Origin: a virus
Virus record (IMG/VR): IMGVR_UViG_3300032163_001782
Coordinates: 1-26,665 of that record
Direction: 5' to 3' (one strand)
Length of the DNA stretch: 26,665 nt
Shown here piece after piece: positions 1-13,232 of this stretch. Position 1 is the stretch's first letter, and every line of letters begins with the position of its first letter. The notes beneath the pieces were generated by a model, which was not told the origin of the DNA, did no database searches, and worked only from the letters and a program-made list of their open reading frames with translations. Made by a program: the position numbers and the translations under genes.

Positions 1-681
1 GTCGAGGACAAGGTCAAGGAGGTCAAGGAAGACATCGTGGTCGCGCTCGGGCTGTCACGGTCACTGGTATCGGGTGACGGTCCCAACTTCGCGACCGCGT
101 CCGTGAGCATGCGCAAGATGGTGGTGATGATCCGGGAGATAACACAAGCGGCGCGAACGATACTCGACTGGATATACGACGATTGGTTGGAGCTTGCTGG
201 GCATGAGGGCAAGGGCATCCACTTCCTTTTCAATGACCTCGACCCGACGGACGCCGTCGACTTCAAGAAGCTGCTCATCGAGCTTTATGACCGTAAGCTA
301 ATCAGCCGGTCGTCCCTGCAGATGAAGATGGACCTCGACCCGGAGATTGAAGAAGGCAACCGCCAGAATGAAAGCAAGTCGGCAGACCTGCTGGATGAGA
401 AGCAGGTGAAGCCCATCGTTGACATGGTGGTCGCCGGGATAATGAGTATTGAGAGCGCGCAGCAGATGCTGGGGTTGGACCCGGCGAAGAACCCCGTGGG
501 CTCCGGCGCTGCAGCAGACTGGGCAGGTCTATTCACGCAGGCCAACTTCTCGGACAAGCTCTGCGACGACTGCGGGTACTTCGGTGAGGACAACAACCGC
601 TGCGGCGTTACATCGGCGGAGGTCACGTTTGACACGTCGGCCTGCCGTTTCCTGCGACCCAAGAAGAAGGCTATTCAGTGA
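1..681 (+). CDS. Phage portal protein, C-terminal part (5' end outside window)
   Basis: The reading frame is open from base 1, so the gene begins upstream and about 226 residues are visible. The portal forms the dodecameric ring at the capsid vertex through which DNA is packaged and to which the tail connectors bind. The visible part starts with a charged helix and a stretch reading GLSRSLVSGDGPNFATAS, typical of the region after the portal clip and stem, followed by long amphipathic helices. Its position directly before a MuF gene supports the call. Odd point: the end carries four cysteines (codons at 562, 571, 601 and 643, spacing C-x2-C-x9-C-x13-C), which look like a small metal-binding knuckle. 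The stop overlaps the next start (GTG at 678). The family is inferred from motif feel and gene order, not from a search. Confidence 0.82.
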   Translation, partial: VEDKVKEVKEDIVVALGLSRSLVSGDGPNFATASVSMRKMVVMIREITQAARTILDWIYDDWLELAGHEGKGIHFLFNDLDPTDAVDFKKLLIELYDRKLISRSSLQMKMDLDPEIEEGNRQNESKSADLLDEKQVKPIVDMVVAGIMSIESAQQMLGLDPAKNPVGSGAAADWAGLFTQANFSDKLCDDCGYFGEDNNRCGVTSAEVTFDTSACRFLRPKKKAIQ

Positions 682-3600
682 GAGTGCCCCAGCCCACAAT
701 GTGCGCTGTCGCGGATACGACCTGGCAGGCCAAAGCGATCCGCGAGGCGGCTGGCAAGAGCCTCATGGCTCGCGATATGTACGCGAATCAGGTGGTGACC
801 GAGCTTACGCAGTCGCTTGTTTCCGCGCGCAAACAGGTTCACGCGGCGATGCTTGGTTTTGGGAACCTGGGGTCACTGCCTGATAACAAGCTCGCCGCCA
901 AGCAGGGTCTGGACAAGCTCGACTCCGAGATTGGGGATGTGCTCAAGTCGCTGGAGAGAGACCAGACTCTGATGTTCAAGCGCTCCGGCAAGGCGGCGTT
1001 CCGCTCGGGTGTGTATCGCGGCATAGAAGAGTTCGCCACGGCTCAGATGCCATTCTACAAAGACCTGACGCCGGATGGGATCGACAAGCTCACCACATCT
1101 GTGTTCACCCTTATCGACACCGACGCTCTGGACTTCATGGCCAACTACAACCTCGTGCTTGTGGGCGATGTGCACCGGGAGCTTGCCGACGGCATCCGGA
1201 AGACCATCTTCTCCGGCGTCGCCACGGGCAAGAGCGCCAGAGACATAGTCCGAGACATGGGTAGCGTCATTGAAGACAAGGAATCGTTCCGCCGCGCCGG
1301 GAGCAAGGTGTTCTCCAAAGCGCAGTACCGGATGGAGATGATAGCTCGCACCGAGGTCCTGCGCGCGCACAACCAGGGGCGAATCAAGTTCCACCAGCAG
1401 GTGGGGGTTACAAAGCTCGAATGGATGACCATGGAGGACGAGCGGATGTGCCCGGTCTGCGGCGAGCTTGACGGTAAACAGTTCGACATAGACAAGATTC
1501 CCAGTCAGCCTCGGCATCCAGATTGCCGTTGCAGCAGTATCGTCGCGTGGCCTCTTGTGATCTGCGGCGGGGAACTCGGTGCGACAGCCGCTACGGGTCA
1601 GAGCGCATGCATCCTCCCGCCGCAGGCAATACACGACCAGGCAAAGCAGCAGACCGAGGAAGAGAAGAAACTCAAGGGCGCATTTGAATCCGGTCAGATC
1701 GCGGACCTGTCGGGGCTGACGGTAAAGCAGCTACAGACTCTTGCCAAAGGTAACGGCATTGGTGTCGCTCGCACAAAACCCGACTTCATCAAGCTCCTCG
1801 ACGCGTCAGAGCCGGGGATCGGCCATGCGGACCTCTCCGGCGCGGCGCTGCAGGCAAAGATCAAGCAATATAACATCGCCGCACTGCGTAGTAAAGACGA
1901 TCTCGCGAAACTGCTCGCCGAGAAGCAGGCCATCATCAAGCAGGCGAAAGCCCTGGAGGAAGCCGCGAAGAACGCCGCACCTCAGACCGATCTTTCGGGT
2001 CTTACCGTGGCTCAGCTCAAGGACATGGCCAAGCAGCACGGCGTGTCTCTGAACCTCACTAAGTCCGATGTCATCGAGATGCTGGACGGCCTTGAGCCGC
2101 ACATAGACCATTACAACTACTCCGGCAAGACCCTGATCGCCGCCAAGCAGAAATTCGGCATCCCCCCGCTCAAGAACAAAGAGCAGCTCGTGAAAGCCCT
2201 GGAGAAAACGGCGGGCAAGCAGATGGCTGATCAGGCCAAGCAGCAGGCTCTTGATGTGGCGAAAACCGAGGCGCTGAAGAAAGCCGAGCAGTCTATCAAG
2301 GATGCCGCCGCGCAGATAGTGATGCCGTCCTCTCCGGCGCAGTATTCATCGTTCCTGAACTCGGTGACGGTCGCTGAAGCGGAACTCGCGAAAGGCTCCG
2401 AGCTGCCCGCTGCCGTCATAGAACAGCACGCCAAGGAAGTGGCGCTGAAGAAGCTCACGTTCCAGCAGCAGGTCTCGGCGATGAAGTCCGGCGAACTGAA
2501 AGACCTCGCGAAGCAGACGAAGGTCACGCACTGGCAGTGGGCCACGAAAGATGAACTGACAACACTGTTCAGCGAAACCGATCCTGGAAAGATCGGGGCA
2601 GCCAAAGCAGGCATCGAGGCAAAGCATGCCAAGTGGGCCGAAAAGCACTTGGGTAAGTCCGGCAAGCCCGTGCCGAAGCAGCCGAGCCCACCGCCGACCC
2701 ATCCCACGGTTGAACACACAACACCAGCCGTGCCCGCATTCACCAAGAAAGGCTCGGAGTTTGACAGCGCCGATACCGCCTGGGCAGAGCACGGCAAGCC
2801 TGAGAAGTTTAAGTATGACGGCAACGCCAAAGTCGGAGGCGCTCACGAGAAGGAGTTCTGGCTCGATGAGAACGGCAACAAGTGGCTCTTCAAGCCGGTC
2901 GGCAGAGCATCGGATGACTTCATTGCCGAGGGTGAGGAGGTCGCATACAAGTTAGGCAGGCTCATCGACCCCGATGCAGTGGAGGTCAGAACCATTCGGT
3001 TGAAGGACCGCACCGGGTCGATCCAGAAGTGGCGCAATGATCTGGCTGCCAAGTACGACTTCTCCAGTTTTGATGTAGCCGATCTCACTGCTGAAGAGAT
3101 AGCGCAGGTACAGCGTGAACACGTCCTTGACTGGCTTATCTCAAACCACGACGGCCACTCCAAGCAGTTCCTCCGGGCGAAGAATGGCAAGGTCTACGGT
3201 ATCGACAAGGGACAGCTATTCAAGTTCCTGGGATCGGACAAGCTCTCCGTTGACTATCACCCCAATGGCGTCTGCGGGGAACAGGAGCCGTTCTACAACA
3301 CGCTCTTCCGCGCGGCGAAGCAAGGCAAGGTGACGGTCGACCCGTCCACCACTCTGCGCTACATTCGCGAAGTGGAGCGCATATCGGACGACGATTACCT
3401 CGGTCTGCTGCGGCCTTACGTCGAAGGCAGGTTCGGCAGCGATGAGGCCGGTAAGCGGGCGTTCTACGAACTGGCGCTGGCTCGAAAGCACAACCTGCGT
3501 CGGGACTTCGAAGGGTTCTATTCGGATGTCCTCGGAAAGAAGAAGTTCGCATTCGACGAGGCGGCAGACATCCCCGTCAAAGGTCGTATCGGGAAGGCCG

Positions 3601-5255
3601 AAGAGAAGATCATCGAAGATGCCCAGCGTCTCGGCTGGCAGGGCAAGGCGCTCCCGATAGACGAGGACGACATAGAGGACCAGAACGCGCTCATCTTCAC
3701 CGAGACGGCGAAAGGCCAGCAGCGCACCGTCATCAAGCTCAAGGTCAGGCCGGAGGCGGAATCGAAGATACTGGCCAAGCTCCGCAAAGCCACAAAGCAA
3801 GTCAGCAAGGTCGGGGAGAGCCTGCCGGAAGACGACTTCGCCGCTGATATCCTCGATGCCGCGAAGAGCGTGAACCACCACGCGGGTGATGGCAAGTACA
3901 ACCAGGCCAAGATTGATAAGGCCGCCGGACACATCAAGGCTCTGAGGCAGCTTGCAAAATCCGATGACCCCGACATCCGTGAGATGGCCGAGACCTACAT
4001 CGACTGGGTGGACAGAGTCCAGCAGGCCGCGATTCAAGGTAAGTCCATACCTGAGCGCTTCGAGGGTTATCTGAAGAAGGTCGTTACCAAGGCCAAGAAG
4101 ACCGACTCGGACTTCACGGTTCGTAAGACCAAAGTGCTACTCGAAAAGCGCAGCGTCAGCAAAGGGGACTTATCTGTCGAAAGCGATTCTGCCGATCTGG
4201 GTGACCTGTTCGGCGGACGACACCTTCCGGATGGTGAGCAGTACGAGATAGACTTCGGTGACGGCGTCCGCGCGGTCTACCGCCCGTGGTCATCAAAGAA
4301 CATGTATGCGCATTCCGGGGAGTTCGAGATGGTTGTGCCCGACCGACCCGATGCAAAGAGCCTGGACAGGGCGCTGGAGCGAATGGAGAAGATCGGGCTG
4401 AAGGCTAACGTTGCCACTCCCGAAGACGCGGAGATCCTATATCTCCACAAGCAGGCATATCTGACAAAGGCCGACAAGTCCCCGGAATACACGCAGATGG
4501 TCTCTTCCCTTGACCAGCGCAACGCGTCCAAGACCGAGCGGGTGCAGAGCATGCGCGCGTTCTGGGAGAAGCGGCTCGGGGTTTCGGACATTACGAAAAC
4601 GCCGGGTTATGACCCGGTCGGTGAGTATCAGCTCGGGTTCAAGGACCAGAAGATCGCGGGTGGCTATCGCCATCAGTATCGGTTCGACATTTCCGACGCG
4701 GATATGGAGCGCGATATGGCGGGCTACAGCCTCCACCACAGCCTGACGAACAGCTCCAGCATGAGCGGGTTCCTGGACGCGGCTCTGGAGAACAACGGTA
4801 CCATGATAAGCACGGTCGAGAAGCTTAGGGCCGGGGTGCAACCGCGCGGTATGTCGCCGGAGTCGGACATGAGAAGCGGCGGCGCGTCTTATGTGTTTAC
4901 GCGAATCAAGAAGTCCCCGCTTTCCGGCGCTTCCGGTGAGAATGGGCTCTACTTCAAGAAACGGCTTCTGCGGCGCATGGATGCCATTAGCTACAGTCAC
5001 GATGCCTTTGGCAAGGTTACCGAAGACTATGTGCCCACGCACCGGGGCAGCGATCCCAAGACCTGGAAGACTTATGCGCGCAACTCAAGCAACGAGACCA
5101 TCCTCAAGCACTCCGTGACGCTGCTTGATAACCTGGAAGCGATAGTAGTGGGAAGCGAGTCCGAGCGGACCAAGGTGCTCGCGATATTCAAGAAGCACGG
5201 CATATCCAAGCTGACCGACGGCCGCAAGGTCGAGGAAATCGTTCTGGTGAGGTGA
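678..5255 (+). CDS. Giant MuF minor head protein with SAP-like repeats, kinase-like domain and unknown C-terminal domain
   Basis: A 1525-residue protein from GTG 678, coupled to the portal stop. Residues about 150-290 are a Phage_Mu_F (minor head) domain: ARTEVLRAHNQGR at 223-235, then C258-P-V-C261 and HPDCRC at 280-285, the usual metal-binding ending. Residues about 344-635 hold at least five SAP/HeH-like helix repeats with the pattern LSGLTVxQLxxxAKxxG..KxDxxxxL. A proline-rich linker (about 660-690) follows. Residues about 715-930 look like a HipA/PI3K-like kinase: WLFKP with K739, catalytic-loop-like SNHDGHSKQF (D825) and GID with D843. Residues about 1330-1525 form a further globular domain (LHHSLT at 1352, SGGASYVFTR near 1403, LEAIVV near 1486). 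MuF proteins are packaged in virions, and MuF fused to variable effectors is a known phage polymorphic-toxin layout. The kinase call is moderate and the C-terminal function is unknown. Confidence 0.85.
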   Translation: MRVPQPTMCAVADTTWQAKAIREAAGKSLMARDMYANQVVTELTQSLVSARKQVHAAMLGFGNLGSLPDNKLAAKQGLDKLDSEIGDVLKSLERDQTLMFKRSGKAAFRSGVYRGIEEFATAQMPFYKDLTPDGIDKLTTSVFTLIDTDALDFMANYNLVLVGDVHRELADGIRKTIFSGVATGKSARDIVRDMGSVIEDKESFRRAGSKVFSKAQYRMEMIARTEVLRAHNQGRIKFHQQVGVTKLEWMTMEDERMCPVCGELDGKQFDIDKIPSQPRHPDCRCSSIVAWPLVICGGELGATAATGQSACILPPQAIHDQAKQQTEEEKKLKGAFESGQIADLSGLTVKQLQTLAKGNGIGVARTKPDFIKLLDASEPGIGHADLSGAALQAKIKQYNIAALRSKDDLAKLLAEKQAIIKQAKALEEAAKNAAPQTDLSGLTVAQLKDMAKQHGVSLNLTKSDVIEMLDGLEPHIDHYNYSGKTLIAAKQKFGIPPLKNKEQLVKALEKTAGKQMADQAKQQALDVAKTEALKKAEQSIKDAAAQIVMPSSPAQYSSFLNSVTVAEAELAKGSELPAAVIEQHAKEVALKKLTFQQQVSAMKSGELKDLAKQTKVTHWQWATKDELTTLFSETDPGKIGAAKAGIEAKHAKWAEKHLGKSGKPVPKQPSPPPTHPTVEHTTPAVPAFTKKGSEFDSADTAWAEHGKPEKFKYDGNAKVGGAHEKEFWLDENGNKWLFKPVGRASDDFIAEGEEVAYKLGRLIDPDAVEVRTIRLKDRTGSIQKWRNDLAAKYDFSSFDVADLTAEEIAQVQREHVLDWLISNHDGHSKQFLRAKNGKVYGIDKGQLFKFLGSDKLSVDYHPNGVCGEQEPFYNTLFRAAKQGKVTVDPSTTLRYIREVERISDDDYLGLLRPYVEGRFGSDEAGKRAFYELALARKHNLRRDFEGFYSDVLGKKKFAFDEAADIPVKGRIGKAEEKIIEDAQRLGWQGKALPIDEDDIEDQNALIFTETAKGQQRTVIKLKVRPEAESKILAKLRKATKQVSKVGESLPEDDFAADILDAAKSVNHHAGDGKYNQAKIDKAAGHIKALRQLAKSDDPDIREMAETYIDWVDRVQQAAIQGKSIPERFEGYLKKVVTKAKKTDSDFTVRKTKVLLEKRSVSKGDLSVESDSADLGDLFGGRHLPDGEQYEIDFGDGVRAVYRPWSSKNMYAHSGEFEMVVPDRPDAKSLDRALERMEKIGLKANVATPEDAEILYLHKQAYLTKADKSPEYTQMVSSLDQRNASKTERVQSMRAFWEKRLGVSDITKTPGYDPVGEYQLGFKDQKIAGGYRHQYRFDISDADMERDMAGYSLHHSLTNSSSMSGFLDAALENNGTMISTVEKLRAGVQPRGMSPESDMRSGGASYVFTRIKKSPLSGASGENGLYFKKRLLRRMDAISYSHDAFGKVTEDYVPTHRGSDPKTWKTYARNSSNETILKHSVTLLDNLEAIVVGSESERTKVLAIFKKHGISKLTDGRKVEEIVLVR

Positions 5256-5257
5256 GC

Positions 5258-5734
5258 ATGAGAGAGTTCATAGCGAGCGAAAAGACGAGACTGCAGGTCC
5301 TTTTTGAGGAGTTCAACCGCGACGGGTCGATCATGGTGATGCGTGAGGGGCACGACACGCCGCTGCCGTTGGGACTCGTCGACAGCTACATCGTGACGCG
5401 CGTCGCCCCCAGCTTCGATGCTGCGGGCAACGTCACCAAGACGGACTTCTGGGTGATGTTCAAGTCGGTAGGCTACAATAACGGGTATCAGTATGCGCAC
5501 ACCATCAAGGTCGTTGGATGGGGCAGCGAAGACAGTTACGAGCTTGACCTCACCGATGATCGCGGACGCCGGTACCACATCGAGCTGATCATGGATATAG
5601 CGGAACACGACTATGTTGTCGACTGGCGCACGTGGCATAGCTACAAGGCCGCAAATGCCGCCGAGTTTGAGATCATCGACACTCAGCTTCTCGCTGAACA
5701 TAGGGCGATTGCGGAGGGCTGGGATGCGGCTTAG
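5258..5734 (+). CDS. Unknown acidic protein, translationally coupled to the MuF gene
   Basis: 158 residues, not recognised. ATG 5258 is preferred over GTG 5252 because GAGGTGAG lies just upstream. The gene begins at the stop of the MuF gene and overlaps the next gene by 11 bases, so the three are coupled. The protein is acidic, soluble and beta-rich in the middle (IVTRVAPSF, WVMFKSVGY, HTIKVVGWG), with no signal peptide or membrane segment. By position it could be an immunity or partner protein for the MuF C-terminal domain, or a small head protein. Nothing in the sequence decides between these. Confidence 0.7.
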   Translation: MREFIASEKTRLQVLFEEFNRDGSIMVMREGHDTPLPLGLVDSYIVTRVAPSFDAAGNVTKTDFWVMFKSVGYNNGYQYAHTIKVVGWGSEDSYELDLTDDRGRRYHIELIMDIAEHDYVVDWRTWHSYKAANAAEFEIIDTQLLAEHRAIAEGWDAA

Positions 5735-6125
5735 ATACATGCTGGAGTATGTGCTGCGAGACCGGGACACAAACCCGCGCTACGAACCCATCGGCGTGTG
5801 GGTGCAGGGTCCGGGGCCGGGGCTGGATATCGCCATGGAGTTTCTGCCCGCTAACGATGAATCCCAAGAGGAAGCGGACTGGGTCATCAACCGGCTGGTG
5901 GAGAATGATATCAAGTCTCTGCCGGATGGCTTTCTGGAGTATCACCGGGCGACGATGTCGCCGTATCGCGGCATGCGCGGCGAGATTGTTGAGACCCAGG
6001 AGTACGCGACGGCGGAGGAGTGCGCAAAGTCGGTCGTACGGCTGATGGCTTCGCAAGGTGACATGAAAAAGACAGAGGATTTGACCGGCTTTGCCAGGCT
6101 GAAATCCTCTGTCAAGAAGCTCTAA
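5724..6125 (+). CDS. Unknown small phage protein whose C-terminus is encoded by a minus-strand terminator
   Basis: 133 residues from ATG 5724, with GGAGGG at 5713-5718. Not recognised. The central part is acidic (ANDESQEEADWVINRLVEND), followed by the stretch LEYHRATMSPYRGMRGEIVE and then ATAEEC. That second half recurs in a truncated copy at 6721-6864, so this is a real conserved family. The last 20 or so residues come from a perfect inverted repeat that serves as terminator for the convergent hsp20 gene. They are absent from the second copy and may have been acquired when the cargo block inserted. It may be an immunity-like or accessory head gene. Confidence 0.7.
   Translation: MRLRYMLEYVLRDRDTNPRYEPIGVWVQGPGPGLDIAMEFLPANDESQEEADWVINRLVENDIKSLPDGFLEYHRATMSPYRGMRGEIVETQEYATAEECAKSVVRLMASQGDMKKTEDLTGFARLKSSVKKL
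6066..6113 (-). terminator. Rho-independent terminator for the minus-strand hsp20 gene
   Basis: A perfect 12-base inverted repeat (GACAGAGGATTT at 6071-6082, AAATCCTCTGTC at 6102-6113) encloses a 19-base loop. On the minus strand it is followed directly by TTTTT (AAAAA at 6066-6070 on plus). It lies 30 bases past the hsp20 stop. There is no T-run on the plus side, so it works in one direction. It sits wholly inside the 3' end of the convergent coding region 5724-6125. Confidence 0.85.
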
Positions 6126-6142: not shown

Positions 6143-6592
6143 TCAAGCCTCTATGGGCACTTTATGCTCCTTTGGTTTGGCCTCCTCTAGTTCCGGTGCC
6201 GTGATCTCAAGCACTCCATCCTTGAAGGTCGCTCTCACCTGATCCGGCTTGATAGCGGCCGGCACCGGGATTGTGCGGAAGAATCTCCCCTCTCGCCTCT
6301 CATGGCGATAGAAGCCCTCCTTCTTCGTCTCTTCTTCTCGTTTGAACTCGCCCTTGAGGCTGATGCGGTCCTCGGTGGCAGTGACGTCGATGTCCTCTTC
6401 CTTCAAACCCGGCAGCTCGGCTTTCACCACCACATTGCCATCTCGCTCATAGACGTCCACTGGAGGACCAGCCATCTCAGCCGTCGGCCAGACAGAACTG
6501 ATGAGTGGCCTCGCGAAGCTTTCGATCAGCCTGTCCATGTCCTCCTGCATCCTGCGCAACTCTGTCATCGGTTCCCATCTTACTAAGCTCAT
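6143..6592 (-). CDS. Small heat shock protein Hsp20 (alpha-crystallin family)
   Basis: 149 residues. The ATG at 6592 is chosen over the longer frame because GGAGGTGA lies 5 bases upstream and the protein then starts MSLVRWEPMTELRRM, the usual start of this family. The alpha-crystallin domain covers about residues 40-135: VDVYERDGNVVVKAELPGL, then EDIDV, and the conserved GVLEIT near the end. The tail VPIEA resembles the C-terminal I-x-I anchor. Such proteins are ATP-independent holdases that bind unfolding proteins. The gene faces against the phage operon and has its own terminator, so it is cargo. Hsp20 genes are known in some large myoviruses, for example cyanophages. A CIRCE-type operator was not seen. 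Confidence 0.95.
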   Translation of the reverse strand: MSLVRWEPMTELRRMQEDMDRLIESFARPLISSVWPTAEMAGPPVDVYERDGNVVVKAELPGLKEEDIDVTATEDRISLKGEFKREEETKKEGFYRHERREGRFFRTIPVPAAIKPDQVRATFKDGVLEITAPELEEAKPKEHKVPIEA

Positions 6593-6720
6593 CAGATTCA
6601 CCTCCAGAACGGTCTGTGGGGATGAGACCCACGTTGATGCGATTCGAGAGCATGTGCTGGCTCCGAAATCTGACAGATGTTTTCCCACAACGAGTGCGCA
6701 ACTAAACCATCGGCATCAGT

Positions 6721-6864
6721 GTGCTAGACTTCCTAGAGTATCACCGGACCACAATGTCTCCGTATCGTGGGATGCGCGGTGAGATAGTGGAGACTGATGA
6801 ATTCGCGACGGCGGAGGAGTGCATCAGCAACGTGCCGCGTAGGCTCGCTGCCAGCCGAGGATAG
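6721..6864 (+). pseudogene. Truncated paralogue of the small phage gene at 5724-6125
   Basis: An open plus-strand stretch of 47 codons ending in TAG reads FLEYHRTTMSPYRGMRGEIV and then ATAEEC, matching the second half of the 5724-6125 product at about 30 of 43 positions. Most base differences are at third codon positions, so the copies diverged while coding and this is not a fresh duplication. The N-terminal half is missing and no ribosome site or credible start precedes it. It lies between hsp20 and the phosphatase gene. It suggests that phage sequence once ran through here before the cargo genes arrived or were rearranged. Confidence 0.75.
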
Positions 6865-6885
6865 CATGTCTGCAATGAGTAACGA

Positions 6886-8142
6886 TCACGAGCTTTTTGG
6901 TTCGGTCTCGACCAACAGTATCGCCACGTCGTCTCTGAGGTGTGGAAACGAGAAAGCCTGCAAGTGCTCCAGCAGCCGATCAGTGAACACCCTCGGCGGC
7001 TCTTGAGCATGGGACAGGAAAAACTCCTTCAACCGCTCCAACCCAAAGAACCCTTCCTTTGAGCTCGCCTCTGTTACTCCATCAGTGTACAGCAGTATTC
7101 TGCTGCCCTCCGTAAAGCGAATTGAATGTTGTTCGTAGGTCGTTTCGGCCCTGACGCCCAAAGGGATTCCCGTATTCGGAAGCTCCACGATCCCGGCGTT
7201 GTCGGGAGTCAAGCATAAAGGCGGTTCGTGCCCGGCGTTCACATAGCATAGCGTACGTTCCCGCACATTCAGCAGTCCGTAGAACACGGTAACGAAGGAT
7301 TCCGGGATGGTCTCCCGCACGATCACACTGTTCAATGCGTCCATAACGGAGGTGGGAGAGGGATCTATGTAGGAATAGGCCTTCAGACTGTGTCTGGTCA
7401 GCGCCGTGCGCACCGCCGCCTCAACTCCCTTGCCTGCAACATCGCCTATGACTATTCCGACAAGACTGGGAGTTGGACAGAACACGTCAAAGAAGTCCCC
7501 GCCGATCTGCGCCTTTTCCAGAGCCGCCCGGTAGACGCTTGCCAGGTGCAGGCCATCCAGTGTCTGCGGGATGCTTGGAAGCAGGGCTTGCTGCAGTGTT
7601 TCCGACACGCGGCGCTCTCTTGCGTAAGCCTGCCTGAGAGCCTCTTGCGCTTGTCGTAGTGAAGTAATGTCCTCTGTTGAAGCGACAGCCCCGTAGATAC
7701 CGCCGGACTCGTCATATAGCGGCGCTGATCCCAGCAGAAGATAGCTGGTCTTTCCGGTCCGGGTTTCGACGACCAATTCTTCACCGTAGACCACTTGCCC
7801 AGTGCGTAGTGACCTGTGGATCGGCATCTCCTCCATCGTGAACAGGCTGCCATCCGGATGGAGCAGTCTATTGGAGGCAAGATAGGCAGGCAGCGGTTCG
7901 CCAATCTCAGGAGGTGCGCCGAAGAACTCGTGGGATCGCCTGTTCATTAACACTATCCGGGCATCAGTTCCTTCCACTACTATAAGCCCTGATGGGACTG
8001 TGTCGAGCACCGTCTGGAGGCGGTTGCGTTCCAGTTGGGCGCGTCGGAGCGATTCCTCCAGCCTGGCTTCGGCCAGTTTCCTCGCCTCGATATCTGTCGT
8101 CGAATCTGCTTGTGTGGTCTCGTCGTCTCTCACTTTTCCCAT
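6886..8142 (-). CDS. PAS domain plus SpoIIE/RsbU-type PP2C serine phosphatase
   Basis: 418 residues. An N-terminal coiled coil (about 15-45) leads into a PAS domain (about 40-165, including VLDTVPSGLIVVEGTDARIV and ending YGAVASTEDIT). The C-terminal SpoIIE domain (about 200-415) has all the metal-binding motifs: GGDFFDVF, IGDVAGKGVEAA, LYTDGVTEA and RDDVAILLV. Members dephosphorylate anti-anti-sigma proteins or similar partners in partner-switching control; the PAS domain would be the sensor. No STAS or anti-sigma partner is nearby. The ATG has GAAGG immediately beside it, so GTG at 8133 (spacing 9) is an alternative start. It follows the AbiE remains and may be read from the AbiEi promoter. 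Cellular-type cargo, unusual inside a structural operon. Confidence 0.93.
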   Translation of the reverse strand: MGKVRDDETTQADSTTDIEARKLAEARLEESLRRAQLERNRLQTVLDTVPSGLIVVEGTDARIVLMNRRSHEFFGAPPEIGEPLPAYLASNRLLHPDGSLFTMEEMPIHRSLRTGQVVYGEELVVETRTGKTSYLLLGSAPLYDESGGIYGAVASTEDITSLRQAQEALRQAYARERRVSETLQQALLPSIPQTLDGLHLASVYRAALEKAQIGGDFFDVFCPTPSLVGIVIGDVAGKGVEAAVRTALTRHSLKAYSYIDPSPTSVMDALNSVIVRETIPESFVTVFYGLLNVRERTLCYVNAGHEPPLCLTPDNAGIVELPNTGIPLGVRAETTYEQHSIRFTEGSRILLYTDGVTEASSKEGFFGLERLKEFFLSHAQEPPRVFTDRLLEHLQAFSFPHLRDDVAILLVETEPKSS

Positions 8143-8297
8143 CCTTCAAAATACGGGCACCAGACCCAGGCTCTCGACATTTCCAGCCCCGACTTGGTTT
8201 CGTCGTTGTGGTATACAACGAGATCCTGCTCAACCATGTCCGGCTACGACCACGGCACTGTCTGCTGCAATTCGGTGATGTAGGCCGTGGGGATCAT
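8143..8297 (-). pseudogene. Decayed AbiEii-type toxin gene (start only, in-frame stop)
   Basis: On the minus strand an ATG at 8297 overlaps the AbiEi stop (ATGA). The translation MIPTAYITELQQTVPWS is followed by an in-frame TAG, then PDMVEQDLVVYHNDE. The pattern I..(10).PW....VEQDL is the typical start of AbiEii nucleotidyltransferase toxins, which are normally coupled to AbiEi in this way. The match fades after VEQDL, and the frame ends at the beginning of the phosphatase gene. The nucleotidyltransferase core is absent. So the toxin is lost by a nonsense change and a deletion. The family match is from memory. Confidence 0.75.
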
Positions 8298-9082
8298 AAG
8301 TCTGGCTCGATTTCGGCATTCGCGATCACGCGCCACTTGGGCTCACGCGGGCCATCTTTGGGCAGATCCGTGCGCATCGGCCGCCATGCCATCTGCTTGC
8401 TTCGAAGTCTTTCGGCGAGCGAACCGGTCTTCTCAGACCAGCCCGCATAGTCGAGCAGCCATCCAAGGCGTTGGAGAGTCGCGACCTCCGTCTCCGAGTC
8501 AACCAATGCTGCCAGATGATCAGGGCTGATCCTTTCACCTAGTTCCTGCAACACCGTGGCGGCAAGGTCCAATGATGGGCATGCCTTCGGATACCGCAGG
8601 ATGTCGTAGGCCGTCATTTCGGGGGTGCTTATCCAGAAATACCCAGCCGGGGACCGCCGCTGCTCACGGCAGTTGTCTGGGACATCCTTCTTGTAGAAGA
8701 ATGAGATCTGGTAGGGCCCCTTATCGACGGATCGAAACTCCGTATCCCGGACTATCTGCACCTGCTGCGGCTTCTGGTGAGATGCCCCGTGCAACATGGC
8801 GGCGCTCAGCAGCCCGAGATAGTAACGTCCGCCAAGATGTGCCATCCAGTCTTCGATGAACCACTCCACGGGAAGAAATCCGCTGCTTTGGTGCTGCGGG
8901 TCGATGATGACGTAGAATCCCCTGCTAGGAGAGAAGAGCCAGCCCTGTCTTACCAATCTGTTGATTGCCTTCTGGGTCTTCTCGCCCGTGCCTATGGCAT
9001 TCTCGGCTTCCTTGAGAGGAAACGTGTAGTAGCCGTGCTCCAGTCGGGACAGCACGAAGTCCTTTGCATGTGCAACTTTCAT
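8294..9082 (-). CDS. AbiEi-type antitoxin / transcriptional regulator (type IV toxin-antitoxin)
   Basis: 262 residues. An N-terminal winged helix (about 8-60: LSRLEHGYYTFPLKEAEN, then INRLVRQGWLFSPSRGFYVI) is followed by the antitoxin region with YYLGLLSAAMLHGASHQKPQ and the QVQIVRDTEFRSV strand, ending with a long helical C-terminal domain. In complete AbiE systems this protein represses its own operon and counters the AbiEii nucleotidyltransferase, which gives phage resistance by abortive infection. Here it is intact but its toxin partner is a fragment, so it may act as a stand-alone regulator or protect against other AbiEii toxins. A good promoter lies upstream at 9121-9149. Confidence 0.9.
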   Translation of the reverse strand: MKVAHAKDFVLSRLEHGYYTFPLKEAENAIGTGEKTQKAINRLVRQGWLFSPSRGFYVIIDPQHQSSGFLPVEWFIEDWMAHLGGRYYLGLLSAAMLHGASHQKPQQVQIVRDTEFRSVDKGPYQISFFYKKDVPDNCREQRRSPAGYFWISTPEMTAYDILRYPKACPSLDLAATVLQELGERISPDHLAALVDSETEVATLQRLGWLLDYAGWSEKTGSLAERLRSKQMAWRPMRTDLPKDGPREPKWRVIANAEIEPDL

Positions 9083-9149: not shown

Positions 9150-9359
9150 GCCATCCGAGATAGCTGTCCTGGATGGGCACGGCCTGCACTTGATCGCGTG
9201 CTCCGTAAGGTATAGGAATCCTATCCCTTTCGCTACACAGCATCAAGCCGACCTCGCTTCTTGAACACCGAAAAGATTCCGGCACGCCGAGAATTCCGCC
9301 AGTAAATATCAACTGGAGAGGTTCCCTGCCAATGGGAACCGCACGTGTCGGAGTGATTG
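9150..9359 (+). other. Intergenic region before the methyltransferase-protease gene
   Basis: No gene is supported here. It holds a 13-base palindrome, ATAGGA-A-TCCTAT (9212-9224), and a hairpin GGTTCCC (9320-9326) / GGGAACC (9334-9340) with a 7-base loop, 19 bases before the ATG at 9360. The hairpin has no T-run, so it is not a simple terminator. Either could be an operator or RNA structure controlling the downstream head genes. No convincing plus-strand promoter was seen. Confidence 0.5.
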
Positions 9360-12300
9360 ATGCAGCTTTTCGCCACGGACAATGACCGGCTTGCCTTTCT
9401 TCTGGAGACTGACGCCTCGCGCCACCTCGAGCAGCTTCTCGCCGAGGCAGCGGAGCTTGTCACCGAGGAACTGCCTGCCGATCAGCGGCCCAAGTACATA
9501 ACCAACTATATCGGCTCCAAGCAGAAGCTCATCGACTGGATCTGGAAGCACACTCCCGAAGGGGTGGATTCAGTCCTTGACGCGTTCTCCGGCTCTGGCG
9601 TCGTTGCCTATATGTATAAGACCAAGGGCCTCAAGGTCACTGCCAACGACCGGCTCCGCTACTCCTATCACGCTGCCCGCGCAATAGTCGAGAACTCAAA
9701 CGTCCGGATAAGCGAGGACGAGCTTGCTGTTCTGCTTGCGGATAATCCAAAGGCTGGGACCTTTGTCCGAGACAACTTCAAAGGGATTTTCTTCGCAAGC
9801 GGAGTGCATGGCGTCATCGATCAGATCCGGGCTAATGCTGATAAGCTCGAGGGATTCAAGAAAGACATTGCGTTCTTTGCTCTGGGCAAGACTTGCATGT
9901 CCGGCAAGGGCGGCTTCGGCCACTTCTCTTCCTCGACCGACTACGGTAAGCGCCAGGACACTCCAGAGGAGTTTCGGCAGCGCTTCGCGGATAACATCGC
10001 GCGTATAAACGCGCTCATCTTCGATAACGACAAGGAGTGCAAGGCATCCAACAAGGACATCAACGAGATCCTGCCGGAAGCCAAAGTAGACCTTGCCTAC
10101 TTCGACCCGCCATACGCAACCGAGTTCTCGACGACCAACTATGAGAAGAGCTACCACTTCGTCGAAGGTTTGATGACCTACTGGGACGGGCTCACGCTCG
10201 TCGAGGACTCCAAGACTCACCACTATCAAACCGACCACAAGACAGTAACGAAGGCCAACGCCAATGAGTTCTTCGGTACATTCCTTGCAAGCGCCAAGCA
10301 CATTCCAAACTGGCTCATATCCTACCGCGACCACGCCTACCCAAACGAAGGCGAGATGAAAGACATCATCTCGGCAAACGGGATGTCCAGTCGGATGCAG
10401 TCCCAGCAGCACAGGTATCACATCTCATCGAAGCATTCCGAGAACTCAGTCGCGATGGAGCACCTCTTCGTGTGCTCTCGCTCAAAGGAGATGAAGCAGA
10501 ACGCAAGCCTCTGTCCTGTCTGTTCTCAGCAGGCAATGGAGGCCGAGGCCGTATGGGACGAGACGGAAAACGAGATCCGCTTTCGTATGCGCGACCCCGA
10601 ACAGTTCGAACCCGACAGTTTCAGGACGAAAACCCTCGACGGCGTGGACGGCGTCGCGATCATCGTCGGCAGGCTGAAGAAGGAGAGCGTTCCACAGGGG
10701 CATGATCCGCGGGCGATGGTGCTGCAGGCATATCGCTTTGCCAAGAAGACGGAGCAGAACCCCGAAGGCTGGACAATCGAGAAGGCCAAGGAGTGGATCG
10801 CTGATCATGAACCGGAAGCCTCCAAGGCTGAGATTCGAACAGAACACAACATGGAGGCGCTGGCCGCTGCGCCGTTTGCGGACGAGTTTGACCTGCTCTC
10901 CTGCCAGGCCGGGATGGACCCGGTCAAGGTAACCGGCTTCATGGGCAACAAGTACGTGATGCTCGGCTGGATCGAGCGGCAGCTTCCCAAGGATGCAAAG
11001 ACGGTAGTCGACGCGTTCTCAGGCGGAGCCAACGTCGCCTATCACTTCAAACGCAAGGGACTGAAGGTCATCGCGAATGACCTTCTGCTCTTTCCATATC
11101 ACGTTGCGCGCGCGGTCGTGGAGAACTCCCACGAGACTCTCACCGACGAAGATATCGAGAATATCCTCGCGCCGAACCCCGACGCAGGCACATTCATCGT
11201 CGATAACTTCAACGGCTACTACTACACGAAGAAGGTTCTCTCCTGGCTCGACCAGGTGTGGGCGAACATCCAGAAGCTCTCCGGCTACAAGAAAGACCTG
11301 GCGCTGGCCGCGCTCGGAAACACTGTCAAGGCGAAGAGTCTCTACGGCCAATTCCATCGCTCGAAGATCAACCTCAAAGCCGAACTCGGCATGGATGCCG
11401 ACGCGGAGATGGAGGCATATGCTGGTGGGTTCAAGGAAAGCCAGCTCACCAGCATCCCCATCTCCAGCATGGTCGAAAGCTTCAAGCGATACGCGAACCA
11501 GCTCAATCGACTGGTCTTCGACAGCGGGCAGGAGTGCAAGGCTTTCCATGGCGACGCGGTAGAGGCGGTGCGGAAGTACGGCGCGGACGTCCTGTATCTC
11601 GACCCGCCTTACATCACCGAGTTCTCCAACAACGACTACGAGTATTCGCTGCACTTTGTCGAGGGCCTGATGAACCGTTGGGCGGACAAGGAACTTCTCG
11701 ACGATAACCGCCGCAGCTACAAATCGAGGACTCACTATGACCGTGAGAGCATCCGCTCGCTCATTGAGAACCTGGTTTCGGAGGCGCACGGCAAGTATAA
11801 GACCGTGATCATGTCCTACCGCGACCGGGCGTTTCCCACTGAGAAAGATATAAAGGACATCTTCTCCGAGCGATTCGGGCAGGTCCGGGTCAAGGGAATG
11901 GATGTCGAGTATGGCATCGTGCTCGGCAAGGGGGGTGAGGGCAAGAACGGTCGCGAACTTCTCTTCATCGCATCGGGTTCTCGGCAGGCTCCAAGGTCAA
12001 TCGCCTCGGCCGGCGCTTCCAATTGCCACACTACTATCCCCGTGGAAGTGAGTCTGAAGATCACAGACGGACTCTCGGCCGAAGCGATTGACCTCAACCC
12101 CAACGCGGGGGACCCGCAATTTAGCTTTGTGATGTGCCGCGCGGGCACGAACAGGAACGGCGATCACTTCACCCCGGACGAGCTGGCGGCTCGCTACACG
12201 ACGGCCATCAACAAGAAGATCGACCTGAAGCACTCCCAGGACCTCACGGACATCGTGGGCGGGATAATGGCGGCTGACTTCGTGGAAGACGAGACCGGCG

Positions 12301-13232
12301 GGCGCGTCGAGTGCGTGGGCGAGCTATTCACGACGGACACCCCTACCGCTGCGCTCGCCCACAAGCTCATGAAACGCGGGATCATCACCCAGGTCTCGAT
12401 GGAATGCGACTACGAGACCGGGGAGTGCTCCATCTGCGGCAAGACCGTCACGAGTAAGAACGACTACTGCGTCCATCTCAAGAAGTCCAAAGGCGCGGAG
12501 TATCAGGGCAAACCGGTGTTCGAGATCCTGCACGGCGTCACATTCACCGGCCTTGGGCTTCTGGATCGCAAGGGCGCGGATGACAACGCGCGAATAACAC
12601 AAGTCGCCTCGCAAGAGGCACGGCAATGCAACACAGGAGGCAACTCAGTGGACGACATCCAGAAAGAGAACGAAGAGCAGCTTGAGGCTGCGAAGAAGAA
12701 AGAAGCCCCGGCTGGCGGGGCCGCTCCTCCGGTAGACGACAAGGCCCGGGTGAAGGAGCTTGAGACGGAGAACAAGGATCTCAAGAACCAGGTTCTTGAG
12801 CTTCAGAAGCAGGTCCAGGAACTTGAGGCGGCGAGCAAGGCTGCCGCGAACAAAGCGCGTGCGCAGAAGCTGGTGAAGAAGCTTGAGCGCGCAGGAATGT
12901 CCTTTGCATCCGACGAGGACAAGGATCAGGAACTCAGCCGACTTGCCGGGCTTTCCGATGAATCGTTCGCGGCTACCGAGGCCGCTTACGACAGGGCCGT
13001 TCAGGCCAAGCCCGATTGCCCGAACGCGGCAAAGCAGGATGCGGACAAAGAGACCCCTGGGGCCGACAAGTCCGCTTCGGCATCGGCGGATCGGCAGCTT
13101 AGGACAGACGCCGGAGTGCGCGCGCTGGAAGTAGACGACAAGAAATCATCGCTGGAGGACAAACTCCGCGACGGATTCATGACAGCCTACCGCGAGCGAG
13201 TCGGTCTCGCGGGTTCAGGCAAGAGCAACTAA
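9360..13232 (+). CDS. Fusion: two D12-class DNA adenine methyltransferase domains + prohead protease + scaffold
   Basis: 1290 residues with no internal stop, from ATG 9360 (GGAG 6 bases upstream). Domain 1 (about 45-380): YIGSKQKLIDWI, SAM-binding DAFSGSG at 74-80, catalytic DPPY at 249-252. Linker module (about 385-490): C385-x2-C388, then RDPEQFEPDSFRTKTL and WTIEKAKEWIADHE, a stretch I associate with phage protease-type proteins. Domain 2 (about 520-870): GFMGNKYVMLGWI, DAFSGG at 551-556, DPPY at 748-751. Residues about 897-1080 resemble a prohead protease: candidate catalytic H958 (DLKHSQD) and S1013 (TQVSMEC), and a zinc knuckle C1023-x2-C1026-x10-C1037-x-H1039. Residues about 1090-1290 are a charged coiled-coil scaffold. 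The place between MuF and capsid genes is normal for protease/scaffold but not for methyltransferases. Confidence 0.88.
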   Translation: MQLFATDNDRLAFLLETDASRHLEQLLAEAAELVTEELPADQRPKYITNYIGSKQKLIDWIWKHTPEGVDSVLDAFSGSGVVAYMYKTKGLKVTANDRLRYSYHAARAIVENSNVRISEDELAVLLADNPKAGTFVRDNFKGIFFASGVHGVIDQIRANADKLEGFKKDIAFFALGKTCMSGKGGFGHFSSSTDYGKRQDTPEEFRQRFADNIARINALIFDNDKECKASNKDINEILPEAKVDLAYFDPPYATEFSTTNYEKSYHFVEGLMTYWDGLTLVEDSKTHHYQTDHKTVTKANANEFFGTFLASAKHIPNWLISYRDHAYPNEGEMKDIISANGMSSRMQSQQHRYHISSKHSENSVAMEHLFVCSRSKEMKQNASLCPVCSQQAMEAEAVWDETENEIRFRMRDPEQFEPDSFRTKTLDGVDGVAIIVGRLKKESVPQGHDPRAMVLQAYRFAKKTEQNPEGWTIEKAKEWIADHEPEASKAEIRTEHNMEALAAAPFADEFDLLSCQAGMDPVKVTGFMGNKYVMLGWIERQLPKDAKTVVDAFSGGANVAYHFKRKGLKVIANDLLLFPYHVARAVVENSHETLTDEDIENILAPNPDAGTFIVDNFNGYYYTKKVLSWLDQVWANIQKLSGYKKDLALAALGNTVKAKSLYGQFHRSKINLKAELGMDADAEMEAYAGGFKESQLTSIPISSMVESFKRYANQLNRLVFDSGQECKAFHGDAVEAVRKYGADVLYLDPPYITEFSNNDYEYSLHFVEGLMNRWADKELLDDNRRSYKSRTHYDRESIRSLIENLVSEAHGKYKTVIMSYRDRAFPTEKDIKDIFSERFGQVRVKGMDVEYGIVLGKGGEGKNGRELLFIASGSRQAPRSIASAGASNCHTTIPVEVSLKITDGLSAEAIDLNPNAGDPQFSFVMCRAGTNRNGDHFTPDELAARYTTAINKKIDLKHSQDLTDIVGGIMAADFVEDETGGRVECVGELFTTDTPTAALAHKLMKRGIITQVSMECDYETGECSICGKTVTSKNDYCVHLKKSKGAEYQGKPVFEILHGVTFTGLGLLDRKGADDNARITQVASQEARQCNTGGNSVDDIQKENEEQLEAAKKKEAPAGGAAPPVDDKARVKELETENKDLKNQVLELQKQVQELEAASKAAANKARAQKLVKKLERAGMSFASDEDKDQELSRLAGLSDESFAATEAAYDRAVQAKPDCPNAAKQDADKETPGADKSASASADRQLRTDAGVRALEVDDKKSSLEDKLRDGFMTAYRERVGLAGSGKSN
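12635..12640 (+). promoter_or_regulatory. Internal ribosome binding site for a nested scaffold protein
   Basis: A perfect AGGAGG lies inside the fusion gene, 7 bases before an in-frame GTG at 12648. It falls exactly at the junction between the protease-like part and the coiled-coil part. Confidence 0.6.
12648..13232 (+). CDS. Probable nested scaffolding protein (internal start of the fusion gene)
   Basis: In-frame internal GTG start giving a 194-residue protein beginning (M)DDIQKENEEQLEAAKKKE. It contains a coiled coil (about residues 35-75: KELETENKDLKNQVLELQ), a helical part, and a lysine/aspartate-rich tail. The layout copies lambda C/Nu3, where the protease and the scaffold share a C-terminus and the scaffold is made in excess from an internal start. 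A scaffold would guide capsid assembly and be removed by the protease. No other scaffold gene is visible. That the internal start is used is an inference from the ribosome site. Confidence 0.55.
   Translation: MDDIQKENEEQLEAAKKKEAPAGGAAPPVDDKARVKELETENKDLKNQVLELQKQVQELEAASKAAANKARAQKLVKKLERAGMSFASDEDKDQELSRLAGLSDESFAATEAAYDRAVQAKPDCPNAAKQDADKETPGADKSASASADRQLRTDAGVRALEVDDKKSSLEDKLRDGFMTAYRERVGLAGSGKSN

What the first reader, a model, noticed from the sequence alone, without database searches (positions are those of the whole stretch)
678..5255. MuF protein carrying SAP-like repeats, a kinase-like domain and an unrecognised terminal domain
The MuF domain takes up less than a fifth of the 1525 residues. 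The rest looks like a payload: at least five short DNA-binding-type helix repeats, a HipA/PI3K-like kinase core (K739, D825, D843), and a C-terminal domain with LHHSLT, a GTMIST segment, SGGASYVFTR and LEAIVV. That last pattern (early H, middle S/T, late E) could be an ADP-ribosyltransferase-like fold, which is speculative. MuF fused to toxins is an established polymorphic-toxin arrangement in phages. Two enzyme-like domains in one virion protein would be notable.
Basis: partly seen in the sequence, partly recalled or inferred. Interest (0 to 1): 0.78.

Follow-up and report, generated by a model that had tools for sequence, protein, structure and literature searches.

The report
Phage head protein carrying two enzymes
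A capsid protein of a bacterial virus carries two predicted enzymes, a kinase and a DarT-like ADP-ribosyltransferase, and is nearly always followed by two small genes; it is probably injected into the host with the viral DNA, and the same unit is conserved in prophages of several distant bacterial phyla.

Summary
Window 678-5255 encodes a 1525-aa protein: portal-proximal MuF domain (Pfam E 1.3e-15), four to five SAP/Rho-N-like repeats, a proline-rich linker, an atypical kinase (AlphaFold pLDDT 94; best solved match CtkA, E 3.8e-6; K739, D825, D843 invariant in 43 relatives), and a C-terminal domain whose three best PDB matches are DarT, a nucleic-acid ADP-ribosyltransferase (probability 0.96-0.99, but E only 0.02-0.06). 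H1354, R1384, R1409 and E1473 are nearly or fully invariant. The catalytic glutamate is probably E1473, not the one in LEAIVV. Sequence comparison with the DarT family is not significant. The payload is not polymorphic: over 100 loci from Desulfobacterota, Armatimonadota, Acidobacteriota and others keep the same kinase and C-terminal domain, followed by two small genes hardly ever seen without it. In mycobacteriophages the same kinase is fused to a different, Pfam-recognised ADP-ribosyltransferase. Best explanation: a virion-packaged two-enzyme effector with cognate immunity or chaperone genes. Activity, injection and immunity are inferred, not shown. New variant of a known kind (MuF/polyvalent effector fusions).

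The parts
1..681 (+). C-terminal part of the portal protein gene, upstream, overlaps the MuF gene by 4 nt
   Evidence: phrog_2739 portal protein, E 3.2e-24; coordinates
678..5255 (+). MuF - SAP-like - kinase - X1/X2 - DarT-like ADP-ribosyltransferase fusion, 1525 aa
735..1652 (+). MuF region (residues 20-325; Pfam core 172-287)
   Evidence: PF04233 E 1.3e-15; TIGR01641 E 1.1e-17
1689..2210 (+). four SAP/Rho-N-like helix repeats (residues 338-511)
   Evidence: profile-profile matches between repeats, 93-98% for the best pairs
2475..2585 (+). fifth, weaker SAP-like repeat (residues 600-636)
   Evidence: 54-61% to repeat 3
2775..3542 (+). atypical kinase domain, HipA/CtkA/PI3K-like (residues 700-955; K739, N823, D825, H827, D843)
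   Evidence: pLDDT 94.1; Foldseek CtkA 3akl E 3.8e-6, TM 0.52; HipA_C weak in 42/43 relatives; invariance
3555..4217 (+). X1 region, alpha/beta plus helices (residues 960-1180), function unknown
   Evidence: conserved in nearly all members; model
4230..4682 (+). X2a region between X1 and the transferase-like domain (residues 1185-1335), function unknown
4695..5252 (+). DarT-like ADP-ribosyltransferase domain (residues 1340-1525; H1354, R1384, R1409, E1473)
   Evidence: mean pLDDT 89 for 960-1525, mostly above 90 here; Foldseek PDB ranks 1-3 all DarT, prob 0.96-0.99; invariance
5252..5734 (+). g160, 160-aa partner gene, 4-nt overlap with the MuF gene stop; putative immunity or chaperone protein
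   Evidence: found directly downstream in 123 loci; no Pfam or PADLOC match
5724..6125 (+). g170, second partner gene (start by comparison with relatives about 5724; longer ORF 5613-6125)
   Evidence: 124 loci; a separate scan finds it only beside this cassette except one cut contig and one relic

Best explanation
It is a portal-associated minor head protein that doubles as a packaged two-enzyme effector. The MuF part would anchor the protein at the portal inside the head (known for the MuF family, inferred here). The SAP-like repeats would bind the packaged or injected DNA (inferred). On infection the C-terminal two thirds would enter the cell with the DNA (inferred by analogy with T4 Alt and MuF proteins). 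There a CtkA/HipA-like kinase and a DarT-like ADP-ribosyltransferase act on host components, for the second enzyme more likely a nucleic acid or a protein bound to one. The two small genes that follow would protect the producing cell or fold the effector: g160 perhaps serves the transferase half, g170 the kinase half. Shown: gene, domain order, kinase fold and catalytic residues, conserved cassette. Supported but not proven: the ADP-ribosyltransferase fold. Inferred: injection, catalysis, targets, immunity.
For: MuF match and position after the portal gene. Kinase fold at high confidence with CtkA and HipA among the matches, catalytic residues 43/43. C-terminal model confident and its three best PDB matches are all DarT; DarT had been named in the notebook from motifs before that search. 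DarT needs R51 and E160 and uses H13/T15/N19 and Y71 for NAD (PMC9967889); the domain has H1354, R1384, Y1405-F1407 and E1473 in the same order with comparable spacing. In all 12 annotated phage records with this kinase it sits in a protein with transferase-like domains: Pfam-confirmed on one representative each of the McProf and Onyinye groups, by eye only in Phrappuccino and its relative. Partner genes in 123-124 loci, NTGA stop overlap in 56 of 76 non-redundant loci. L075 keeps g160 and lacks g170 where the kinase is of a diverged type.
Against: Foldseek E-values for DarT are 0.02-0.06 and profile-profile comparison with ten DarT proteins gave 1% probability. No Pfam, NCBIfam or PADLOC transferase hit. 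H1354 and R1384 are lost in the most distant relative L172, R1384 also in L166. The residue correspondence with DarT is by eye. The invariable C-terminus is unlike MuF toxins. No macrodomain or NADAR reversal enzyme was seen next to it. The partner genes could be ordinary late genes. There is no virion proteomics.
Confidence: 0.6

Rival explanations
1. The kinase-like and transferase-like parts are a fixed structural or assembly extension of the portal-associated protein, with the enzymatic folds reused and no activity needed on the host.
For: The C-terminal part is the same in essentially all members, co-diverges with MuF (r 0.93), and is nearly always followed by the same two small genes.
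Against: Catalytic-type residues are among the most invariant positions; kinase absent in Pan1, diverged in L075, payload split from MuF as a separate gene in L128, L131, L159, L160, L162.
Confidence: 0.2
2. The kinase mainly regulates the transferase in cis (or keeps it inactive until delivery) instead of acting on host targets.
For: The kinase family is joined to transferases of different types in several phage lineages; kinase-fold control of a transferase is known for other effectors (own knowledge, not tested).
Against: Pan1 carries the transferase-like domain without kinase; actinophages Morgana and Sixama have the R-S-E transferase without this kinase.
Confidence: 0.12
3. A classical MuF polymorphic toxin: the C-terminus is an exchangeable toxin cassette with its own immunity gene, used against rival bacteria or superinfected cells.
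For: MuF fused to ADP-ribosyltransferases and small downstream ORFs are features of MuF toxins (PMC5576092); a different small-gene family follows the R-S-E transferase gene in actinophages.
Against: No exchange of the C-terminal domain within the group, only at much larger evolutionary distance.
Confidence: 0.08

Closest known systems
MuF / SPP1 gp7 minor head proteins and MuF toxins (Jamet et al. 2017, PMC5576092)
   Same: MuF domain above Pfam cut-off, next to portal, C-terminal enzymatic extension, small downstream ORFs
   Different: Two enzyme domains plus DNA-binding-type repeats; C-terminus constant across phyla instead of polymorphic
Phage polyvalent proteins (Iyer et al. 2017, PMC5512222; 2022 survey PMC9503650)
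   Same: Large multidomain proteins predicted to be packaged and injected; ARTs, kinases and SAP/Rho-N domains all known as parts, and ARTs fused to MuF
   Different: Their kinase group has an insert between the conserved H and D; here H824 and D825 are adjacent. Their MuF-fused ARTs are mostly Alt/VIP2 and N4-ART types; this one is DarT-like by fold
DarT (PF14487), Thermus sp. 2.9 DarT 7OMX/7OMY
   Same: Best structural match; H, R, aromatic-F and E residues in the same order with comparable spacing
   Different: No significant sequence similarity, no DarG or NADAR partner seen, part of a 1525-aa virion protein
H. pylori CtkA, HipA and PI3/4-kinase-like atypical kinases
   Same: Fold and catalytic K, D, D
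   Different: Below Pfam HipA_C cut-off; no HipB partner seen; fused to a head protein
Mycobacteriophage McProf gp54 and Onyinye gp16 (annotated ADP-ribosyltransferase)
   Same: Same kinase family plus a C-terminal ADP-ribosyltransferase in one protein; McProf gp54 also has a minor capsid domain; a small gene follows
   Different: Transferase is of the PF03496 R-S-E type, small gene unrelated (profile comparison 0.1%), no SAP-like repeats found by Pfam
Pseudanabaena phage Pan1 head morphogenesis protein
   Same: MuF plus the same C-terminal transferase-like domain (33.5% identity over the domain)
   Different: No kinase; a different gene follows

Membership tests
MuF minor head protein (PF04233) | MuF domain above curated cut-off | tested here: met
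   58.5 bits vs 29.6
MuF minor head protein (PF04233) | Gene next to portal in head cluster | tested here: met
   portal C-terminus at 1-681, capsid and sheath genes downstream
MuF minor head protein (PF04233) | Protein present in virion and ejected | not testable with these tools
   needs virion proteomics
HipA family (PF07804) | HipA_C above curated cut-off | tested here: not met
   20.7 bits vs 30.5 for the domain
Atypical kinase fold (CtkA/HipA/PI3K-like) | Kinase fold and catalytic K, D, D | tested here: met
   Foldseek E 3.8e-6, TM 0.52 to CtkA; residues 43/43
Polyvalent-protein kinase group (Iyer 2017) | Insert between conserved H and D | tested here: not met
   H824 (42/43) and D825 (43/43) are adjacent (definition)
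DarT (PF14487) | Pfam or profile similarity | tested here: not met
   no Pfam hit; hhalign 1.1%
DarT (PF14487) | DarT-type ART fold | tested here: inconclusive
   ranks 1-3 in PDB, prob 0.96-0.99, TM to target 0.50-0.53, but E 0.02-0.06
DarT (PF14487) | Catalytic R (R51) and E (E160), H at first strand | tested here: inconclusive
   H1354 21/22, R1384 20/22, E1473 22/22; register with DarT by eye
DarT (PF14487) | Adjacent DarG macrodomain or NADAR antitoxin | tested here: not met
   g160 and g170 have no Pfam match; only the window's neighbours were scanned
R-S-E ADP-ribosyltransferase (PF03496) | Pfam match to PF03496 | tested here: not met
   not among the families matched by this domain or listed for 35 members, whereas McProf and Onyinye proteins hit
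Polymorphic toxin (MuF type) | Variable C-terminal toxin domain on constant N-terminus | tested here: not met
   same C-terminus in the group, co-divergence
Polymorphic toxin (MuF type) | Downstream small immunity gene | tested here: inconclusive
   two conserved small genes; immunity not testable here

The most novel reading that the evidence does not exclude
A phage injects a DNA-tethered DarT-like enzyme with its genome and ADP-ribosylates host nucleic acid at entry, with the fused kinase controlling or complementing it. Kinase plus transferase would then be a recurrent, functionally coupled pair of virion effector domains, assembled several times with different transferases, each with its own partner gene.
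Probability: 0.15. Interest if true: 0.78.

Novelty: new variant of a known kind. Interest (0 to 1): 0.52.

Why it matters
MuF-effector and polyvalent fusions are known, but a constant kinase plus DarT-like transferase payload held by prophages of several bacterial phyla suggests a basic function in infection, not a strain-level weapon. DarT is best known as a bacterial toxin that can act against phage DNA; a phage head protein with a similar fold would turn that chemistry around. The partner genes give directly testable immunity candidates, and cultured bacteria carry the cassette (for example Ectothiorhodospira shaposhnikovii and Desulfatitalea alkaliphila).

Tried and rejected
Sequence-level link to DarT by hhalign against ten DarT proteins: not significant (1.1%); however DarT against KptA, which shares the fold, was also not significant, and the KptA set held one sequence, so the test has little power. 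PDB sequence searches with the C-terminal and kinase profiles: nothing meaningful. Hypothesis that g160 or g170 and the McProf gp55/Onyinye gp17 family are homologous: rejected (0.1%); the actinophage small gene follows the R-S-E transferase with or without kinase. L024, which lacks payload and both small genes, looked like a natural deletion test but is a decayed copy with broken frames, so it was not used as evidence. The g160 alignment could not be used for a collection scan. The split kinase gene in L050, suspected to be an intron, is a transposase insertion; no Rfam match. Defence-system match for the protein or partners: none.

Full report
Observation. The ORF at 678-5255 is intact, starts with GTG, overlaps the end of the portal gene and encodes 1525 residues. 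Pfam finds MuF at 172-287 (E 1.3e-15), weak Rho_N/SAP at about 438-467 and weak HipA_C at 804-831. PHROG 6577, of unknown function, covers most of the protein in pieces. Comparing profiles of the repeats with each other supports four SAP-like repeats strongly and a fifth weakly.

Relatives. Four scans of viral and genome collections gave well over 100 loci. In nearly all, the order is MuF, SAP-like region, kinase, X1, X2 with the transferase-like domain. Genome records include bacteria titled Armatimonadetes, Desulfobacterota genera, Acidobacteriota, Ectothiorhodospira, Anaerolinea, Rhodopirellula and Pontiellaceae; several are MAGs, but Desulfosarcina widdelii and D. alkanivorans are complete chromosomes, so prophages occur. 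Variants: MuF as a separate gene from SAP-kinase-X (L128, L131, L159, L160, L162), about 570 further residues before MuF in a 2129-aa ORF (L047), a diverged kinase in L075 (profile E 8e-4 to this kinase), and MuF plus transferase-like domain without kinase in Pseudanabaena phage Pan1. Pairwise identities of MuF, kinase and X2 correlate at 0.91-0.93, with a few pairs showing local recombination, e.g. MuF 0.79 and X2 0.99 between this protein and L137.

Kinase. AlphaFold gives pLDDT 94. Foldseek finds 663 PDB matches with E of 0.001 or less, CtkA of H. pylori first (E 3.8e-6, TM 0.52), HipA among the first 50. K739, N823, D825, H827 and D843 are invariant in 43 relatives. The domain looks catalytically complete. 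It is not a HipA family member by Pfam's cut-off.

C-terminal domain. Before any fold search I noted from motifs (SYVFTRIKKSP and NETILKHSVTLLDNLEAIVV, against my recollection of DarT) that it might be DarT-like. The model of 960-1525 has mean pLDDT 89. Three DarT structures rank 1-3 with probability 0.96-0.99; the next best probability in the first 50 is 0.51, and no other transferase family appears there. The E-values (0.02-0.06) are marginal; only about 190 of the 566 residues correspond to DarT. In DarT, R51 and E160 are needed for catalysis, H13/T15/N19 bind the ribose and Y71 stacks on nicotinamide (PMC9967889). Ten DarT proteins that I collected keep the corresponding R and E in 10/10. 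Here H1354 (21/22), R1384 (20/22), Y1405 to F1407 and E1473 (22/22) fall in the same order with comparable spacing. The register is by eye. A direct profile-profile test failed. I therefore treat the transferase fold as likely and DarT family membership as not met.

Recurring kinase-transferase pairing. A tblastn search of 50,697 phage records with the kinase found 12 records, all mycobacteriophages. One representative of each of two groups was checked with Pfam: McProf gp54 (VG15 domain, kinase, PF03496 E 4.7e-16) and Onyinye gp16 (kinase, PF03496 E 6.6e-8); IMG/VR relatives carry the same C-terminus. Phrappuccino gp195 has the kinase at 33-278 and three later segments that look transferase-like by eye, without a Pfam match. 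L284, a further relative with two kinase domains, is cut before its end. The pairing with different transferase types suggests a functional link, but the number of independent lineages is small.

Partner genes. Two small genes follow directly: g160 (5252-5734) and g170 (about 5724-6125). They are found in 123 and 124 loci (several loci are overlapping pieces of one contig). Apparent absences in L123, L129 and L167 are explained by short or divergent ORFs on inspection; real exceptions are L075 (no g170), L172 and Pan1 (different genes). In 56 of 76 non-redundant loci the last base and stop of the large gene form NTGA, compatible with a 4-nt overlap; that pattern alone is not rare by chance. 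A separate scan with g170 gave 70 loci; apart from a contig cut at its edge (L224) and an orphan relic near a recombinase (L238), all have the large gene, and g160 except L227, which is the L123 contig. The scan works by conserved patterns and is biased to close relatives. Actinophage R-S-E transferases have their own, unrelated small gene family directly downstream, with or without the kinase. This parallels toxin-immunity organisation, but a chaperone or structural role remains possible.

Mechanism and verdict. MuF toxins and polyvalent proteins are thought to be carried in the head and injected (PMC5576092, PMC5512222, PMC9503650). With two intact-looking active sites, a poorly conserved proline-rich linker between the SAP-like part and the kinase, and partner genes, an injected two-enzyme effector is the most likely explanation (0.6). 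Its constancy across phyla suggests that it helps infection in general and is not an exchangeable weapon. No step beyond sequence and predicted structure has been shown.

Noticed in passing
window 9357-13232 (+): 1291-aa protein with two adenine-methyltransferase modules (about 33-358 and 527-871) fused to a head-protease-like and scaffold-like part; 71 ORFs of related loci carry both methyltransferases plus the protease part. A methyltransferase inside a head-assembly protein is unusual and might also be packaged.
   Followed up: partly
window 6143-9082 (-): Three reverse-strand genes between the cassette and the methyltransferase-protease gene: HSP20, PAS-SpoIIE phosphatase, and AbiEi antitoxin (PADLOC E 3.5e-77) with no AbiEii toxin recognised nearby; none was found in the related loci held.
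   Followed up: partly
L047 342-6728 (same contig as L119): 2129-aa relative with about 570 residues in front of the MuF region, possibly a portal-MuF fusion; the extra part was not matched to a portal family.
   Followed up: no
L050 3033-4634: Transposase-like insertion (IS3-like by eye) splits the kinase domain of a relative.
   Followed up: partly
L075 2052-6743: Relative in which the kinase slot holds a strongly diverged kinase (GNWDVVGMGFDN) and g170 is missing while g160 remains.
   Followed up: partly
L278 3558-9650 (Phrappuccino gp195): 2030-aa protein annotated hypothetical: kinase at the N-terminus and three later repeats that look like R-S-E transferases by eye.
   Followed up: partly
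L202 4415-6357, L203 2097-6330, L026 8141-8509, L028 7253-7651: Small gene family found directly after R-S-E ADP-ribosyltransferase genes in Gordonia and Mycobacterium phages: candidate immunity family.
   Followed up: partly
L284 3386-5749: Actinophage-like contig with two tandem copies of the kinase domain in one protein, cut by the contig end.
   Followed up: no
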